A DNA stretch of 64,000 nucleotides. Source: Bradyrhizobium barranii subsp. barranii. GTDB lineage: Bacteria > Pseudomonadota > Alphaproteobacteria > Rhizobiales > Xanthobacteraceae. The position numbers were made by a program, and so were the translations under genes. The notes beneath the pieces were generated by a model that saw only the letters and a list, made by a program, of their open reading frames with translations, searched no databases and was not told the DNA's origin. Each line of letters opens with the position of its first letter. Positions within the stretch are counted from its first letter, which is position 1. Below, in pieces: positions 42,588-48,243 of this stretch. The DNA lies in assembly GCF_017565645.3 (NCBI RefSeq), contig NZ_CP086136.1, forward strand, positions 2,432,001-2,496,000. Reading direction: 5' to 3'.

Positions 42588-43020
42588 GAGACTGAGCAAG
42601 AATTACTCGTTAGCGGAGGCAGGCCGGTGCGAGCCGGCCGATTGCGAGCGGAGGCTGTATATTGGTCCAGAAGGCCGCTAGAGCAACCTGGATGCACTGC
42701 AGGAGGGCTGCGAGGGTGCCGTCGGCAAGGAGCAAGCGTCTTTGCGAGCGCGGCCAGAAACGCGTCGAAACCCAGGATGTTGAGCACGCGGGTGAAGTTG
42801 TAGCAGAGCGCCATCAGGCTCCACTCGCCGCGGACCTTGTCGAAGCCGCGGACCAGGAAATGACGATAGCCGGCACGGCATTTGAGCGTGCCGAACGGAT
42901 GCTCGACGATGCCAAAACGACGGCGCATCAGCTCGCCTGCGCCCTGCATCCGCGTGCGATGACGTTCAAGAACGCTTTCATGCTCCCAGCGACCGATCGT
43001 CCGGTAGTCCGCGTTCGACG
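42588..43020 (-). pseudogene. 3' fragment of an IS1182-family transposase gene
   Basis: On the minus strand it reads NADYRTIGRWEHESVLERHR, then RRRFGIVEHPFGTLKCRAGY, then RHFLVRGFDKVRGEWSLMAL and YNFTRVLNILGF, the C-terminal part of IS1182 transposases. It starts at the IS66 end (43021), and the joined 8 bp are GTTCGACG. The sequence GAGACTGAGCAAGAA at 42588-42602 also occurs at 63409-63423 ahead of the matching 5' fragment, so it is probably the IS1182 terminal repeat. Confidence 0.85.
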
Positions 43021-43052
43021 GTAAGCGGAGCTTTTCGTAAGCGGAGCTTTTC
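43021..43052 (+). repeat. Tandem duplication of the IS66 left terminal repeat
   Basis: GTAAGCGGAGCTTTTC occurs twice in a row (43021-43036 and 43037-43052) at the left end of the element. The duplicated end may reflect a slipped or one-ended transposition event. Confidence 0.8.
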
Positions 43053-43134
43053 TCCCATTTGATTGACTGGTTTCGCTTCGGCTTTCGCTCTGCGATCCTT
43101 GGCTTGTCAGAGAGCCGAGAGGAGACTGAAGGCG

Positions 43135-43533
43135 ATGGAACAATCGGGGGAGGAAGCTGAAGCTGATGGCTTTGTGGGGAAGCTTACGCGCCGGACGCGT
43201 TCTGGAGGCCGGTTATGGTCTGCGGAGATCAAGGGGCGCGCTGTTTTCGAGAGCATGAAGCCCGACGCCCGGGTATGTGATGTCGCACGGCGTTATGGTG
43301 TGAAGGCCCAGCAGTTGACGACGTGGCGCAGATTGGCGCGTGCTGGCCGGCTCGCATTGGTCACGGACGACGCGGCGGATTTCGTGTCGATCGAGCTGAG
43401 CGATCCAGTGGCGTCAGGCAAGAGCGAGGGGCCCGTCGAGATTACGATTGGCAAGGTTTCGGTCCGCCTGGATGCGGACGTGTCGGCGGTGCGGATCGCG
43501 GAGATCGTGACTGCGATCGAGCGCGGCGCATGA
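43135..43533 (+). CDS. tnpA: IS66-family accessory protein TnpA
   Basis: A 132-residue protein from the ATG at 43135 (GAAGGCG upstream). It has a helix-turn-helix (KPDARVCDVARRYGVKAQQL) and the C-terminal VEITIGKVSVRLDADVSAVR segment of IS66 TnpA. Its TGA overlaps the tnpB ATG (ATGA at 43530), the usual IS66 coupling. Confidence 0.9.
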   Translation: MEQSGEEAEADGFVGKLTRRTRSGGRLWSAEIKGRAVFESMKPDARVCDVARRYGVKAQQLTTWRRLARAGRLALVTDDAADFVSIELSDPVASGKSEGPVEITIGKVSVRLDADVSAVRIAEIVTAIERGA

Positions 43534-43825
43534 TCATTCCGGCGCAGGGACTGCGGATTGTGCTTGCTGTGCGTCCTGTTGACTTCCGGTGCGGGCACGA
43601 CGCGCTGGCCGGTCTTGTGCAAAACACGCTTGGGCTCGATCCGCATTCGGGCCTGATCGTGGTTTTTCGTTCGAAGCGCGCCGACCGGCTGAAGATTTTG
43701 CTATGGGACGGCACGGGCCTCGTTTTGGTCTACAAGCGCCTTGGCCGCGATGGTCGTTTCGAGTGGCCGCAGATCAGCGACGGCGTCATGCATCTGACGC
43801 GCGTGCAGTTCGAAGCGCTGTTCGA
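43530..43825 (+). pseudogene. tnpB: IS66 TnpB, 5' part, interrupted by insertion
   Basis: It starts MIIPAQGLRIVLAVRPVDFR, the classic TnpB N-terminus, and runs to RVQFEALFD, where the serine-recombinase element begins after codon position 2 of the next Glu. The frame then hits a stop inside the element. The remaining codons (EGLNWKRVGERIVATPAAAN, then stop) follow at 46307-46367. Removing 43826-46306 restores an uninterrupted gene of about 118 residues. Confidence 0.92.
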
Positions 43826-45913
43826 TCACCCATGTTGATGCCCCTCCTTGTTAGGCTGACAGATTCTTAGATCAAGTTGCGCGATGACGTGGTTTCGAAG
43901 GTCTCCGATGGCGTGAAGAACGGATGGTGTATTCGGGAAGAGATAGGCGCCGCTGGGCTGGCGATCAATTAGCAAACGCTTGGTTCGGATCTGAACATAG
44001 AGCCAGTTTACTGGAATCTCGAGCCTTCGGGCCAGTTCGGGCGGGCTGAGGTATGAGTCGTCATGCTCCCATCGGCTGCGCTGGGCAGTTACCTTGATGG
44101 CGGCGGCACGACGGAGCCGCCCAACGGTGATAGGCAGCACCTTATCGGCGCAACGGGGAGAGCGGTGACCTTCCCGAGTAAGGATTGTGGCGATCTTGTC
44201 GTCTGGGACGCCGTCGCGAGCGAGCGTCAGAAGGCGTTCCCGCATCTCTGTGCCTCGCGTCAATCTGGTGACGGAGTTGACGCTCATCTTCACTTCGAGC
44301 TCCGTCACGGCGCCTCCCCGCCAGACGATCCTAGCCAGGGCCAAGTCGCGCTCACCGCGGTCGAGAACGACCTTTTCGATGAGACATCGCAACAACGCCT
44401 TGCGATGCGCATCCGAGATAGTCTCGTCACCCCATATCTGCGGGAGGCGGCCGGTGAGGCTGATGACCTTGTCGTTGAGCTCCTTGCTTATGGCCACTTG
44501 TGTGATGGCTTTGGGCGGCGTCTGTCGGGCAAGCGCCTCTTCGGCGGCGCGCACGTCGTTTAGCGCCGCTTCCCATCGACGCTCGAGTTCCGAGGCGACC
44601 AACCGATTATCTGGATCAGCTCGGTTGAACTGCCGTTCGGCGAGCGCCGCCGTGTATCGCTTGCGCTCGAGCTCTCGTTCTGCACTGGAGCGTAGCGCAT
44701 TGTTCGTCTGCTGCTGCACCCGGCGGGAGCGCGACAAGGCATCGAGTTCGGCCGGCGCTAGTGCGGTTAGGAATGCGTCGCCAACGGCTGCATCGATATG
44801 GGCGGCGCGGATGTGTTGGCAGGTTGGCTGACCTTCCTGGGTACGCAGGTGATTGCATACATATTCGCCGCCGCCCTTGTAGCGGACGTACATCTTATGG
44901 CCACATCGTGCGCACCAGGCAATGCCGTGGAGCAGGAGCTCGCCATTGCGAGGCGCGCCGCGGGTTTTGATGCGCATGTATTCGGCTCGGTTATCTCTGA
45001 TGACGGATCGGATTTTTTCATAAATTGGCCAGTCGATATAGGCTGGATATCGATCTTTAACGACGATCCGCCACTCCTCCATCGGCCGCGGAGCCTTTTG
45101 TGGCAGGGCCCCCTCCCGCTTCGGCGGCCGGAAGCGGGTTCGTCCATAGACAAAGGCGCCCGCGTATGCGGGGTTCTTCAAGATCGCCGCGACGGCAGCC
45201 AGCGTCGCGCGCGTCCAGCACAAATCGCCATATCGATCACGACGCGGCAGTTCCAGGTCACGCTCGTTCAACGCTCGCATGACCTTGGCAACGCTGCGCA
45301 GCTGCAGGAATAACTGGAAGACGAGACCGAGCCGCCCTTGCACGGCCATGTCGGGATCCTTAACGACCACACCGCTCGGGTCCCGCATCAGCCCGATTGG
45401 CAGCATAACCGCAAGTTCGCCGCGTTCGGCTTTGGCCAGCAGGCCGGCGGTCAGCCGGCTGCGGATCGTATGTAGCTCAAGCTCGGAGATCGAACCCTTC
45501 AGCCCGAGAAGCAACCGTCCGTTGGGAGTGCCCGGATCATAGACACCATCGCGGTCGGCGATCAGGCAGCCACGTAGACCACAGATATCCAGGAGCGGAT
45601 ACCAGTCGGTACAATTACGCGCCAAGCGGGTCACGTCGATCGACAGGATGAGTCCCACTTCACTCAGGCCAACACGGCCAACGAGTTCCTTGAAGCCGTT
45701 ACGCTGTGCTATAGACGCGCCGCTCAACCCGAGATCGGCATCAATCACGTCGATGGCCGCCTCACGCCATCCGAGTTCGCGGGCGCGCTGGCGAAGCGCG
45801 TATTGAAGGCGCAGGCTCTCCTGATTGCTTACGACCTGATGGGGCGTCGACTGCCGGATGTAGACTACGGCTTTGCGCGCCAAGTGGCTTGGTGTGACCA
45901 GCTCGGACTTCAT
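43826..45913 (-). CDS. Large serine recombinase
   Basis: A 695-residue recombinase. The resolvase domain holds the nucleophile Ser22 in KAVVYIRQSTPHQ and supporting VTRLARNCTDW. A Recombinase domain (PAYAGAFVYGRTRFRPPKRE) and a zinc ribbon (CARCGHKMYVRYKGG, CNHLRTQEGQPTCQH) follow, then a coiled-coil region and a long C-terminal tail with WEHDDSYLSPPELARRLEIP. Its ATG overlaps the stop of the small gene upstream (ATGA at 45913). It catalyses insertion of the element; whether the partner gene directs excision is unknown. Confidence 0.93.
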   Translation of the reverse strand: MKSELVTPSHLARKAVVYIRQSTPHQVVSNQESLRLQYALRQRARELGWREAAIDVIDADLGLSGASIAQRNGFKELVGRVGLSEVGLILSIDVTRLARNCTDWYPLLDICGLRGCLIADRDGVYDPGTPNGRLLLGLKGSISELELHTIRSRLTAGLLAKAERGELAVMLPIGLMRDPSGVVVKDPDMAVQGRLGLVFQLFLQLRSVAKVMRALNERDLELPRRDRYGDLCWTRATLAAVAAILKNPAYAGAFVYGRTRFRPPKREGALPQKAPRPMEEWRIVVKDRYPAYIDWPIYEKIRSVIRDNRAEYMRIKTRGAPRNGELLLHGIAWCARCGHKMYVRYKGGGEYVCNHLRTQEGQPTCQHIRAAHIDAAVGDAFLTALAPAELDALSRSRRVQQQTNNALRSSAERELERKRYTAALAERQFNRADPDNRLVASELERRWEAALNDVRAAEEALARQTPPKAITQVAISKELNDKVISLTGRLPQIWGDETISDAHRKALLRCLIEKVVLDRGERDLALARIVWRGGAVTELEVKMSVNSVTRLTRGTEMRERLLTLARDGVPDDKIATILTREGHRSPRCADKVLPITVGRLRRAAAIKVTAQRSRWEHDDSYLSPPELARRLEIPVNWLYVQIRTKRLLIDRQPSGAYLFPNTPSVLHAIGDLRNHVIAQLDLRICQPNKEGHQHG

Positions 45914-46293
45914 GAGGGATCTCCGCCAAAATTGCGGCGACGTCTTCGACGATCTGGCGTCGGAGCGCGGGCGTCAGCGTCGACCAAAGATCGGCTGGAT
46001 CCATGCTCATGTGCGTCGGGACAATCCGCTGTCGATAAAAGCTCGAGTAGAGCCTCCATACTCAGCTTAATCTGATTTGCCTCTTGCTCATAATATTCGA
46101 TTGCGGTTGCTTGAATCAGAAGACTGCTTCCTGCGCGATACTCAACTTCATACGAAGCGGGAATGCCTCGGCCTCGCTGACCGATCTTCCTAATCACTCG
46201 ATATGAGCGCCCCCACAAAGGATGGTGGGGGTCCCCAACCTCGACCACCTCCGGAAATGATTCGTCAGACTCACTATCAGGGACATTCCTCAA
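45910..46293 (-). CDS. Small protein encoded with the serine recombinase
   Basis: A 127-residue protein starting at a TTG (46293) 13 bp inside the element border. It has a beta-rich core (GDPHHPLWGRSYRVIRKIGQ, then GIPASYEVEYRAGSSLLIQA) and a very basic, Arg-rich tail (DRRRRRRNFGG). It is translationally coupled to the recombinase gene. It has no recognised domain; a directionality-factor or target-binding role is possible but unproven. The start is uncertain because the ribosome site is weak. Confidence 0.55.
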   Translation of the reverse strand: MRNVPDSESDESFPEVVEVGDPHHPLWGRSYRVIRKIGQRGRGIPASYEVEYRAGSSLLIQATAIEYYEQEANQIKLSMEALLELLSTADCPDAHEHGSSRSLVDADARAPTPDRRRRRRNFGGDPS

Positions 46294-46306
46294 TCCCCTC
46301 GTTTGA

Positions 46307-46367
46307 AGGGCTGAACTGGAAGCGAGTGGGCGAACGGATTGTCGCGACGCCAGCTGCGGCGAACTGA
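46307..46367 (+). pseudogene. tnpB: IS66 TnpB, 3' part after the inserted element
   Basis: It reads in frame from the interrupted Glu codon: GLNWKRVGERIVATPAAAN and stop, the normal TnpB C-terminus. It joins 43825 without gain or loss of bases. Confidence 0.9.
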
Positions 46368-46420
46368 CTCAGACCCGACAACCTGTTTCGCGCGGGGCTT
46401 TGGGATGATAGCTTGCGGAT

Positions 46421-48046
46421 GTGCCGCCGTCCCCCATTGATCCCGCCCGTCTTGCAGCGCTGCCCGCCGATTTGCGCGCGCTCTTCCGCGCGCAGGAAGC
46501 GATGATTGAAGCCGAGCGTCGTCGCGCAGACGATGAATGCTCGGCGCGCCTTCATGTCGAGAGTGAACTGGCTGCGTCCAAAGAGAGCGTCGAACGCCTC
46601 GAACTGCTCGTGAAGGAGTACGAGCGCGCACGTTTCGGTAAACGCTCGGAGAAGTTCAATCCCGATCAGATGCAACTGGTTCTCGAGGACATCGAGATTG
46701 CCATCGCCGAAGTCCAGGAACGCCAGGACGATCGTGCGCGCCGCGCCGGCACGGCGCCGTCCAGCCGCCGGACCAGGCGCGCTGCCCGTGCCTTTCCCGC
46801 GCACCTGCCGCGCATCGAGCAGGTGATCGAACCCGAGAACCTCGAGTGTCCCTGCGGCTGCGGCCGGATGGTCCAGATCGGCGAGGATCGCTCCCGCCGT
46901 CTCGATGTCATGGCCGCCCAGTATCGTGTGATCGAGACGGTGCGACCGCGCTACGCCTGCGCAAAGGGCTGCACCGGTGTTGCTCAGGCGCCGGCGCCCG
47001 CCCATCTCGTGGAGGGTGGCATCCCCACCGAGGCGCTGCTGGCGCAGGTGGCGGTCGCCAAGTTCAGCGAGCACATGCCACTCTATCGTCAGTCGCAGGT
47101 TCTGGCTCGGCATGGCATCTTCATCGATCGCGCCGTTCTGGCAGACTGGATGGGAACGGTCGCCTTCCACCTCGCGCCGCTGGTCGAGCGCATGAGCGTC
47201 GTGATGAAGCAATCGGGCCGCTTGTTCATAGACGAGACCAGGGCGCCTGTGCTCGATCCGGGCCGGGGCCGAACGAAGACCGGCTATCTGTGGGCTGTCC
47301 TGCGCGACGATCGCGGCCACGGCGGCGCTGATCCACCAATCGTGGTCTACCACTACGCGCCAGGACGCGGTGGTGACCATGCTGAGCGCATCCTCGAGGG
47401 CTTCGACGGCATCCTTCAGGTCGACGGATACCAGGGCTATCATCGGCTCGCACGGCCCAAGCGCAAAGGCGGCGTGCCGCTGCGGCTGGCCGCATGTTGG
47501 TCCCACTCAAGGCGCAAGATCATCGCAGCGACTCCGAAAGCCGGCTCACCCATCGCCGAAGCCGTTCTCGCGCGCATCGCCGCACTCTATGCGATCGAGA
47601 AGGAGATCCGTGGCGCCGACGCCCCGGCTCGGCAAACGACCCGTAACGAGCGATCACGGCCGCTCGTCGCTGAACTCGAGAGGTTTCTGCGCGAGCAAGC
47701 CGCTCGCCTGTCGCCGGGCAGCGAGATGGGCAAGGCGATCGCCTATCTCCTGAACCATTGGGATGGCCTCACCTTGTTTCTCGACGATGGTTGCGTTGAG
47801 ATGGACACCAATCCCGTCGAAAATCAAATCAGGCCGCTGACTCTGACGCGTAAAAATAGTTTATTTGCTGGTCACGACGAAGGTGGTCGTTCATGGGCGC
47901 GCATAGCTTCGCTCATCGCCACCTGCAAAATCAACAGCGTGGAGCCCTACGTCTGGATGAACGCGACGCTCAAAGCGATCGCAACCGGTCACCCGCAGTC
48001 CCGGATCGACGAGCTCCTGCCCTGGTCGTTCGGCCGCACCTCGTAA
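46421..48046 (+). CDS. tnpC: IS66-family transposase TnpC
   Basis: A 541-residue transposase from a GTG start. The leucine-rich N-terminal region (ESVERLELLVKEYERARFGK) precedes the zinc-binding part (ECPCGCGRMVQIGED, then YACAKGCTGV). The DDE catalytic core has its first Asp in GRLFIDETRAPVLDPG, second in ILQVDGYQGYHRL, and the Glu in TNPVENQIRPL. It is intact, so transposition would be blocked only by the broken tnpB. Confidence 0.93.
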   Translation: MPPSPIDPARLAALPADLRALFRAQEAMIEAERRRADDECSARLHVESELAASKESVERLELLVKEYERARFGKRSEKFNPDQMQLVLEDIEIAIAEVQERQDDRARRAGTAPSSRRTRRAARAFPAHLPRIEQVIEPENLECPCGCGRMVQIGEDRSRRLDVMAAQYRVIETVRPRYACAKGCTGVAQAPAPAHLVEGGIPTEALLAQVAVAKFSEHMPLYRQSQVLARHGIFIDRAVLADWMGTVAFHLAPLVERMSVVMKQSGRLFIDETRAPVLDPGRGRTKTGYLWAVLRDDRGHGGADPPIVVYHYAPGRGGDHAERILEGFDGILQVDGYQGYHRLARPKRKGGVPLRLAACWSHSRRKIIAATPKAGSPIAEAVLARIAALYAIEKEIRGADAPARQTTRNERSRPLVAELERFLREQAARLSPGSEMGKAIAYLLNHWDGLTLFLDDGCVEMDTNPVENQIRPLTLTRKNSLFAGHDEGGRSWARIASLIATCKINSVEPYVWMNATLKAIATGHPQSRIDELLPWSFGRTS

Positions 48047-48243
48047 TTCTCCGTCGTTGCCGCCTCCATACCCCCCGCCAACGATTTGCAAACACGTTGA
48101 TCAACAGACTGCAATCCCCACGCCAAACCTTTGCGAGTGGGACGCGAACGTCGCTTACATTGTATCGACTTCCAAACAAGTGTGATGATCGTCTCATCGC
48201 CATCGGTCACGACCGGGACACTGATGCGCGCAAGGGGGACAGC

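What the first reader, a model, noticed from the sequence alone, without database searches (positions are those of the whole stretch)
43826..46306. Minimal serine-recombinase element inserted without scar into IS66 tnpB
Deleting exactly 2481 bp restores tnpB, with a 2-bp GA shared by both borders as expected for serine-recombinase exchange. The element carries only the recombinase and one coupled small gene, with the recombinase stop codon as its left border. Such a stripped-down element that targets a transposase gene may be a distinct class of 'recombinase-only' mobile DNA, and the small Arg-rich protein may be its directionality or targeting factor.
Basis: partly seen in the sequence, partly recalled or inferred. 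Interest (0 to 1): 0.75.

Follow-up and report, generated by a model that had tools for sequence, protein, structure and literature searches.

The report
Recombinase element homing into IS66 genes
A tiny 2.5-kb piece of mobile DNA, little more than one serine recombinase gene, inserts itself at one exact spot in a gene of another jumping element (IS66), and its relatives sit in genes of other jumping elements, so it looks like a parasite of parasites.

Summary
A 2481-bp insert interrupts IS66 tnpB. Eleven fetched empty copies of the same IS66 (eight distinct) read straight across the site and show that the crossover dinucleotide is TT (element 43823-46303), not GA. The insert carries a 695-aa large serine recombinase and two small overlapping genes, not one.

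Relatives (recombinase 62-99% identical) sit in about 25 tnpB types, at the same codon, in both orientations. The core varies (CT, TT, AT, TG) and differs between the two ends in 8 of 31 insertions.

In the window's genome 17 full-length copies occupy this IS66 and one a different IS66. Across 16 aligned copies the element is 13-16 times less diverse than the IS66 around it, so it spread after the IS66 copies had diverged.

Related clades occupy genes of other mobile elements: IS21 istA and istB (two motifs), an IS3-type gene, group II intron reverse transcriptase, tyrosine recombinases, other serine recombinases. Of 40 sampled relatives at 34-41% identity, 38 lie in such genes (34 seen on both sides).

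Verdict: a minimal, target-specific serine-recombinase element in a superfamily specialised on mobile-element genes. Catalysis, circle and accessory-gene roles are inferred.

The parts
43823..46303 (.). the element, 2481 bp including one copy of the TT core
   Evidence: alignment with natural empty copies
43821..43822 (.). left copy of the crossover dinucleotide (TT)
   Evidence: natural empty site GCGCTG-TT-TGAAGGG
46302..46303 (.). right copy of the crossover dinucleotide (TT)
   Evidence: natural empty site
43826..45913 (-). large serine recombinase, 695 aa: Resolvase, Recombinase and zinc-ribbon domains, YIRQS motif
   Evidence: Pfam scan; 18 full-length copies in this genome
45762..46010 (-). 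ORF-B, small protein MSMDPADLW...; the conserved part is its first ~35 aa (about 45906-46010), the rest overlaps the recombinase start
   Evidence: frame comparison across relatives
45910..46293 (-).
   Evidence: no Pfam match for the window's own copy
43530..43822 (+). 5' part of IS66 tnpB (codons 1-97 and two bases of codon 98)
   Evidence: Pfam PF05717
46304..46367 (+). 3' part of IS66 tnpB
   Evidence: comparison with intact TnpB WP_011090953.1
43530..43838 (+). truncated TnpB frame left by the insertion, 102 aa, ending DHPC
43135..43533 (+). IS66 tnpA
   Evidence: HTH_Tnp_1 match; coordinates by comparison with L115
46421..48046 (+). IS66 tnpC (DDE transposase)
   Evidence: Pfam
43037..48158 (+). 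whole IS66 copy carrying the element (ends GTAAGCGG ... GCTTAC)
   Evidence: ends shared by copies of the genome; 8-bp target duplications at 11 of 15 element-bearing copies

Best explanation
The 2481-bp insert is a self-contained serine-recombinase element whose target is a conserved coding motif of IS66 tnpB (codons for A-L-[L/F]-[E/D]-G-x-[D/N]-W). Shown by sequence: the exact borders; use of one site in many different tnpB genes in either orientation; near-constant size; natural empty sites; near-identical copies in two unrelated IS66 of one genome; an element much younger than the IS66 copies around it. Inferred: the recombinase pairs the joined ends of the excised element (..CCTCG-NN-CGATCA..) with the tnpB site, cuts both at the middle two bases and exchanges strands. 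It tolerates unequal middle bases, which leaves different dinucleotides at the two ends. Insertion leaves 98 of 118 TnpB residues plus a short tail, so the carrier IS66 may stay mobile and carry the element along. The element belongs to a superfamily whose clades mostly each occupy a conserved motif of a gene of other mobile elements.
For: Natural empty sites: 11 of 11 fetched, 8 distinct, and for a second IS66. Same codon: 34 of 41 N-terminal TnpB fragments end at profile position 98-101 of 118; the other seven are explained in the report. 48 TnpB fragments fall into 25 types at 80% and 37 at 95% (a few belong to broken or neighbouring copies). Orientation: 23 forward, 8 reverse of 31 two-sided insertions. 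Same element, 99.6% identical, in an unrelated IS66 of the same genome (L064). Variable sites among 16 aligned copies: 3 of 2481 bp in the element against 31 of 2641 bp in the IS66, Fisher p 1e-6; pi 0.00015 against 0.0025 and 0.0020. Polymorphisms at 43176 and 48137 are shared between occupied and empty copies. One strain (S06B-BJ) holds an empty copy on p1S06B and an occupied one on p2S06B. Tree with target labels that I assigned from the flanks: 17 label changes against 50.6 shuffled, 0 of 200 as low. Both recombinase motifs sought are present in 84 of 95 rows; of the 11 misses, 8 begin after the first motif and 3 (L033, L156, L158) have the first but not my pattern for the second.
Against: No excised circle or tandem junction was found: an attP-like pattern in 265 genomes of the genus gave one hit, the left border of L064 with 2 mismatches. 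One member of the group (L025) lies in a type I restriction gene (PF11867, E 1.1e-39), so targeting is not absolute. Unequal cores in 8 of 31 are unusual for characterised large serine recombinases (recalled). The group of tnpB-targeting rows has support of only 84. Recombination between IS66 copies could also lower diversity in the element.
Confidence: 0.88

Rival explanations
1. The recombinase is a resident accessory gene of one IS66 variant, and the whole composite is a single transposon.
For: IS66 copies with the element have IS66 ends and 8-bp target duplications: 11 of 15 looked at. The base G at 46472 is seen in 12 of 16 occupied copies and in 3 of 6 element-free deletion derivatives but in none of 11 empty ones, so the composite has probably also been copied as a unit.
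Against: Natural empty copies; the same element in unrelated IS66 and in both orientations; element diversity 13-16 times lower than that of its IS66.
Confidence: 0.05
2. Within one genome the element spreads between IS66 copies mainly by repair copying: a cut at an empty tnpB site is repaired from an occupied copy through the long IS66 homology, as with homing elements.
For: Uniform element in diverse backbones. Backbone diversity is lower within 400 bp of the junction in occupied copies (4 of 800 against 27 of 1841 bp, p 0.047). In empty copies the raw contrast is 3 of 800 against 16 of 1841 (p 0.21), but 10 of those far sites come from one short inversion in one copy; without them it is 3 of 800 against 6 of 1841 (p 1.0), so the control shows no gradient. 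Deletion derivatives with right breakpoints 5-15 bp beyond the crossover and scattered left breakpoints look like failed repair of a break at the site. The genome has 6 Ku homologues.
Against: It cannot explain L064 or the other insertions into unrelated IS66, nor reverse orientation. The gradient is marginal, and several of the far variable sites are private to one copy (L062, L063). I raised this from 0.25 to 0.3 after mending the control.
Confidence: 0.3
3. Fixed GA core; the unequal cores seen here are later mutations.
For: Deleting at GA also gives an open tnpB frame, and GA is shared by both borders.
Against: Natural empty sites of two IS66 types contradict it: TTT, not TTC, and CTG, not CTC, at the codon. 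For L026 an empty relative (84% identical) has AG, as at the left border, while the right border has TG.
Confidence: 0.05

Closest known systems
Large serine recombinases / serine integrases that target one conserved gene (surveyed in Durrant et al. 2022, PMC10083194; only passages returned by a term search were read)
   Same: Resolvase + Recombinase + zinc-ribbon architecture, 2-bp crossover, a conserved coding motif as target, diverse recombinases on one target gene
   Different: 2.5 kb in all, with no phage or conjugation gene seen among its frames. The targets are genes of other mobile elements; the passages read name competence genes, a magnesium chelatase and a prolyl isomerase. Unequal cores are common.
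Serine transposases of the TndX/TnpX type (Tn5397, Tn4451); features recalled, apart from the DUF4368 link read in PMC10083194
   Same: Large serine recombinase as the only mobility enzyme, relaxed core rules
   Different: No DUF4368 match, core not GA, narrow target, no cargo
IS607-family serine transposases (recalled)
   Same: A compact element moved by a serine recombinase, with tolerance of different core bases
   Different: 695-aa recombinase with the catalytic domain first (Pfam residues 15-166) and a highly specific target
Group II introns that home into insertion sequences, such as RmInt1 (recalled)
   Same: Parasite of an insertion sequence, site-specific, spreads to copies of its host element
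   Different: No reverse transcriptase; recombinase-based. Some relatives here occupy group II intron genes instead.

Membership tests
Large serine recombinase family | Resolvase catalytic domain followed by Recombinase and zinc-ribbon domains, large protein | tested here: met
   PF00239, PF07508 and PF13408 above their cut-offs, 695 aa; YIRQS motif in the translation
Large serine recombinase family | 2-bp crossover without target duplication beyond it | tested here: met
   TT (GTT by chance) at both borders against 11 natural empty copies, 8 distinct
Large serine recombinase family | Requires identical core dinucleotides in both partners (recalled rule) | tested here: inconclusive
   8 of 31 insertions have unequal left and right cores, which suggests tolerance; an empty relative for one of them has AG
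TndX/TnpX serine transposases | GA core (recalled) | tested here: not met
   cores CT, TT, AT, TG, AG, AA
TndX/TnpX serine transposases | DUF4368 domain common in the clade | tested here: not met
   absent from the Pfam scan
TndX/TnpX serine transposases | Circular intermediate | not testable with these tools
   no joined ends found in assemblies of the genus, which cannot exclude a transient circle
IS66 family | The insert itself has IS66 ends, tnpABC and an 8-bp duplication | tested here: not met
   borders share 2-3 bp only; the frames scanned in the insert match none of tnpABC
Group II intron | Reverse transcriptase/maturase in the insert | tested here: not met
   the recombinase and both small frames were scanned, and they fill most of the 2481 bp; other overlapping frames were not scanned

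The most novel reading that the evidence does not exclude
There is a large superfamily of minimal serine-recombinase elements (one recombinase, one or more small genes, about 2.5-3.3 kb) that live on other mobile elements. Each clade has specialised on one conserved protein motif encoded by a rival mobile element (IS66 TnpB, IS21 IstA, two motifs of IS21 IstB, an IS3-type transposase, group II intron reverse transcriptase, tyrosine recombinases, even other serine recombinases). It reads that motif as DNA with relaxed core rules, and can saturate all copies of its target in a genome while leaving the target element partly functional.
Probability: 0.6. Interest if true: 0.85.

Novelty: new variant of a known kind. 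Interest (0 to 1): 0.75.

Why it matters
Most serine integrases in use come from phages and conjugative elements (recalled). Here is a lineage that evolved to enter other selfish elements at conserved coding motifs. It offers a natural series of related recombinases with eight different target motifs seen here, a test case for tolerance of core mismatches, and a possible brake on insertion-sequence activity in rhizobia: in the window's genome, of the 23 copies of this IS66 that keep the start of TnpB, none has an intact tnpB. It may also explain many 'recombinase family protein' genes annotated inside IS elements.

Tried and rejected
GA as core: rejected by natural empty sites of two IS66 types. 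Recombinase as a resident part of IS66: rejected as the whole story by empty sites, orientation and diversity. Diversity gradient around the site: weak in occupied copies; its control in empty copies was first read as similar, but that rested on one inversion, so it is kept as weak support for repair copying. An in-frame TAG reported in the 62-64% relatives lies, by the strings, a few codons before the usual end; it shortens the C-terminus and needs no recoding. Search for the circle junction: one irrelevant hit. Sampling the order and class gave few close relatives, own genome included: 2 of 397 genomes at E 1e-200 and 3 of 385 at 1e-150. ORF-A structure: modest confidence (mean pLDDT 75.9), no significant fold match, best E 0.03. 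One search stopped with an error after its main counts were printed; the unfinished codon-position count was not repeated.

Literature: ten searches of the open-licence library, and passages of five papers (PMC10083194, PMC9203015, PMC3925955, PMC11578231, PMC8989519); other papers were seen as listings only. Nothing seen there describes this element. Subscription papers were not searched.
Full report
WHAT IS THERE. The window (G000 C1:2432001-2496000) holds an IS66 copy at 43037-48158 whose tnpB is interrupted by an insert. The insert encodes a 695-aa protein with Resolvase, Recombinase and zinc-ribbon domains on the minus strand. Upstream of it lie two small reading frames that overlap each other and the start of the recombinase. 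ORF-A holds a DP.HPL.GR motif. Of four relatives scanned, one passes the DUF5372 cut-off (E 2.9e-6) and three match below it (E 0.001-0.04); the window's own copy has no Pfam match. ORF-B (MSMDPADLW..LRRQIV..) lies in another frame. In the last 99 bp before the recombinase, over up to 20 sequences (19 loci and the window), the ORF-B frame is the best conserved: aa identity 0.65 against 0.50 and 0.49.

BORDERS AND CORE. Intact copies of the same IS66 were found on Bradyrhizobium plasmids. All 11 fetched read GCGCTG-TT-TGAAGGG; by their left flanks they are 8 distinct copies. The window reads GCGCTG-TT-CGATCACCC on the left and CCCCTCG-TT-TGAAGGG on the right. The element is therefore 43823-46303 with core TT. 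A second IS66 (that of L034, Bradyrhizobium sp. DOA9) has 93-94% identical uninterrupted relatives; the one fetched reads CTG-CT-GGAAGG, again against a GA core. Of four joined-flank searches in plasmids, two gave uninterrupted full-length matches (L034: 12 records; L026: 4 records at 79-84%) and two (L014, L020) gave only partial ones.

SAME SITE ELSEWHERE. Relatives came from genome contigs (35 loci), the genus (67 of 265 genomes at E 1e-100 or better, with up to 4 candidates scored per genome), order and class and plasmids (569 records match, 59 of them at 60% identity or more; four at 75-76% were fetched). A TnpB profile built from 105 relatives plus the query was run on the flanks. Of 41 N-terminal TnpB fragments, 34 end at profile positions 98-101 of 118. 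The other seven are L161 at 97, L163 at 95, L013 at 92 (left end deleted), three frame-broken fragments (L023, L087, L101), and L091, where another TnpB scored best. The 48 TnpB fragments form 37 clusters at 95% identity and 25 at 80%; a few of them (such as L030, L091, L105) belong to broken elements or to a neighbouring tnpB. Element length, core counted once, is 2478-2500 bp in 13 of 13 measured. I tabulated by hand 31 distinct insertions readable at both ends, after dropping duplicates of the same insertion (L083, L084, L102, L036, L089, L081, L088, L162/L113, L095), one-sided loci, and irregular ones (L018, L023, L164). 23 are in the window's orientation and 8 reversed; the core is CT 15 times and TT 3 times at both ends in forward insertions. 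In 8 of 31 the two ends differ: GT/TT, TT/CT twice, AG/AA twice, AG/TG twice, AT/AG. For one of these (L026) an empty relative (84%, Paracoccus yeei) has AG. I read this as exchange between partners with unequal middle bases; L064 could alternatively be read as a crossover 1-3 bp away.

WITHIN THE WINDOW'S GENOME. Eighteen full-length copies (100% protein identity as rounded by the tool) are present among 33 matches. Seventeen lie in this IS66; one (L064, C3:191295-193379) lies in an unrelated tnpB remnant at the same reading position, left CTGGTCGA|TCACCC and right CCTCGTT|CGATGGG. Eleven of 15 element-bearing IS66 copies show 8-bp target duplications by eye. The four others are the window copy (L048) and L067, whose flanks match each other's and those of L071 (rearranged), L056 (truncated left), and L058 (flank outside the stretch). 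I aligned 16 element-bearing copies of this IS66 (L051, L052, L064, L066 and L074 were left out as partial, interrupted or in another backbone): 3 variable sites in 2481 bp of element against 31 in 2641 bp of IS66 (Fisher p 1e-6); pi 0.00015 against 0.0025 left and 0.0020 right. Two backbone polymorphisms (43176, 48137) also segregate among empty copies. So the element entered, or was copied into, IS66 copies that had already diverged. Of 23 copies that keep the start of TnpB, none reaches residue 118. Strain S06B-BJ has an empty copy on p1S06B and an occupied one, with the recombinase annotated in pieces, on p2S06B.

SCARS. Six loci that I fetched lack the element and have deletions or rearrangements at the site: L068 and L069 share one junction; L070, L071, L072 and L073 differ, and L073 has other DNA to its left. 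In all six the right arm resumes 5-15 bp beyond the core, while the left breakpoint varies from 19 bp to outside the IS66. L068 and L069 have different flanks, each with its own 8-bp duplication, so an IS66 with a cut-down tnpB has moved, in cis or with help. The genome has six Ku homologues. Breaks at the site repaired by end joining are a plausible but untested cause.

SUPERFAMILY. From the listing I chose 40 stretches with 34-41% identical recombinases (several genomes with repeated copies, the rest from different genomes; two had been seen before as short loci with unresolved targets). Seeds were joined target genes (Pfam identities: IstB_IS21, RVT_1 with GIIM, Phage_integrase, rve, Resolvase; the IstA piece scanned matched rve weakly and HTH domains, and its name IstA is recalled). 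Abutting matches on the two sides of the element (with for L120): IS21 istB near its C-terminus 14; istB at the P-loop 7 (L155 right side only); IS21 istA 6 (L145 left only); tyrosine recombinase 7 (L147 left only, L149 right only); group II intron reverse transcriptase 4; not placed 2 (L156, L158). So 34 of 40 are seen on both sides, 4 on one and 2 not at all. In two of the 34 (L127, L129) the two halves resemble different istB types, so these copies are rearranged. In one genome (G091) four almost identical copies lie in clearly different istB genes. Nearer relatives: L112 lies in an integrase-core gene that I name IS3-type from recall (rve). L042, L103 and L104 lie in other serine recombinase genes: both halves match in L104, and one half by Pfam in L042 and L103, L103 being readable on one side only. 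L041 and L099 abut group II reverse transcriptase sequence on one side (RVT_1 with GIIM for L041; RVT_1 just below its cut-off for L099); their other side is too short or unresolved. In a tree of 95 rows (75 distinct) the target labels, assigned by me from the flanks, need 17 changes against a shuffled mean of 50.6, 0 of 200 as low. The tnpB label is confined to one group of 47 rows (41 tnpB, 6 unlabelled; support 84), and the reverse transcriptase label arises twice. Near-copies help such clustering. The six unlabelled rows are L016 and L088 (one element, left end lost, right flank reads tnpB), L024 (contig end), L025 (in a type I restriction gene, PF11867; one true exception), L027 and L030 (ends lost).

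HOW IT WORKS (steps marked). Shown: site, borders, two orientations, recent spread, target class. Inferred: recombinase-catalysed exchange through an excised circle. The joined ends would read CCTCG-NN-CGATCACCC. Tolerance of unequal middle bases would explain the change of orientation, because a CT core pairs forward and an AG core in reverse. Also inferred: copy number rises by integration after replication or by repair copying, and by occasional transposition of the loaded IS66. The base G at 46472 is in 12 of 16 occupied copies and 3 of 6 deletion derivatives but in none of 11 empty ones. For repair copying there is weak support: backbone diversity drops near the junction in occupied copies (p 0.047), and the control in empty copies shows no drop once one inversion is set aside (3 of 800 against 6 of 1841 bp, p 1.0; with it, 3 against 16, p 0.21). 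ORF-A and ORF-B are candidates for control of direction or target choice, without a test; ORF-A is predicted as a small beta barrel with one helix at modest confidence.

COMPARISON. By domains it is a large serine recombinase. It is not an IS66, not a group II intron, and does not meet the GA-core and DUF4368 features of the TndX-like group. Only the catalytic domain has sequence relatives of solved structure (3g13, 3guv). In the literature that could be searched I found no description of recombinase elements dedicated to IS66 or to other mobile-element genes (searches named under Tried and rejected).

Noticed in passing
L068-L073 (window-equivalent right breakpoints 46308-46318): Six element-free derivatives of this IS66 all resume 5-15 bp right of the crossover, with scattered left breakpoints; one has an inverted 70-bp piece.
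   Followed up: partly
L119-L158 (34-41% relatives): Sister clades occupy IS21 istA and istB, group II intron reverse transcriptase and tyrosine recombinase genes.
   Followed up: yes
L042, L103, L104: Related elements inserted in the catalytic part of another serine recombinase gene: parasites of their own kind.
   Followed up: partly
L127, L129 (G196): The two flanks of these elements come from different istB types, as if copies had recombined within the element.
   Followed up: no
window 47496; L063, L073, L115, L166: Several copies of this IS66 are broken at or near the same tnpC position; in L115 and L166 a reverse transcriptase gene follows, so a group II intron may be a second site-specific parasite of this IS66.
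   Followed up: no
window 43020-43037 and 48158; L067, L071: Target duplications of the window's IS66 and of two other copies are swapped among them, and a 16-bp IS66 end repeats at the left border, pointing to rearrangement between IS66 copies around the window.
   Followed up: partly
L025:1-7503: A 73% relative sits outside tnpB, in a type I restriction gene (PF11867); a rare off-target.
   Followed up: yes
L136-L138, L150, L154: The istA-targeting clade has about 1.2 kb upstream of the recombinase, with a further long reading frame, so its elements are larger.
   Followed up: no
L171 (NZ_CP088278.1): A different recombinase family gene overlaps the end of IS66 tnpC in B. barranii; possibly yet another target within IS66.
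   Followed up: no
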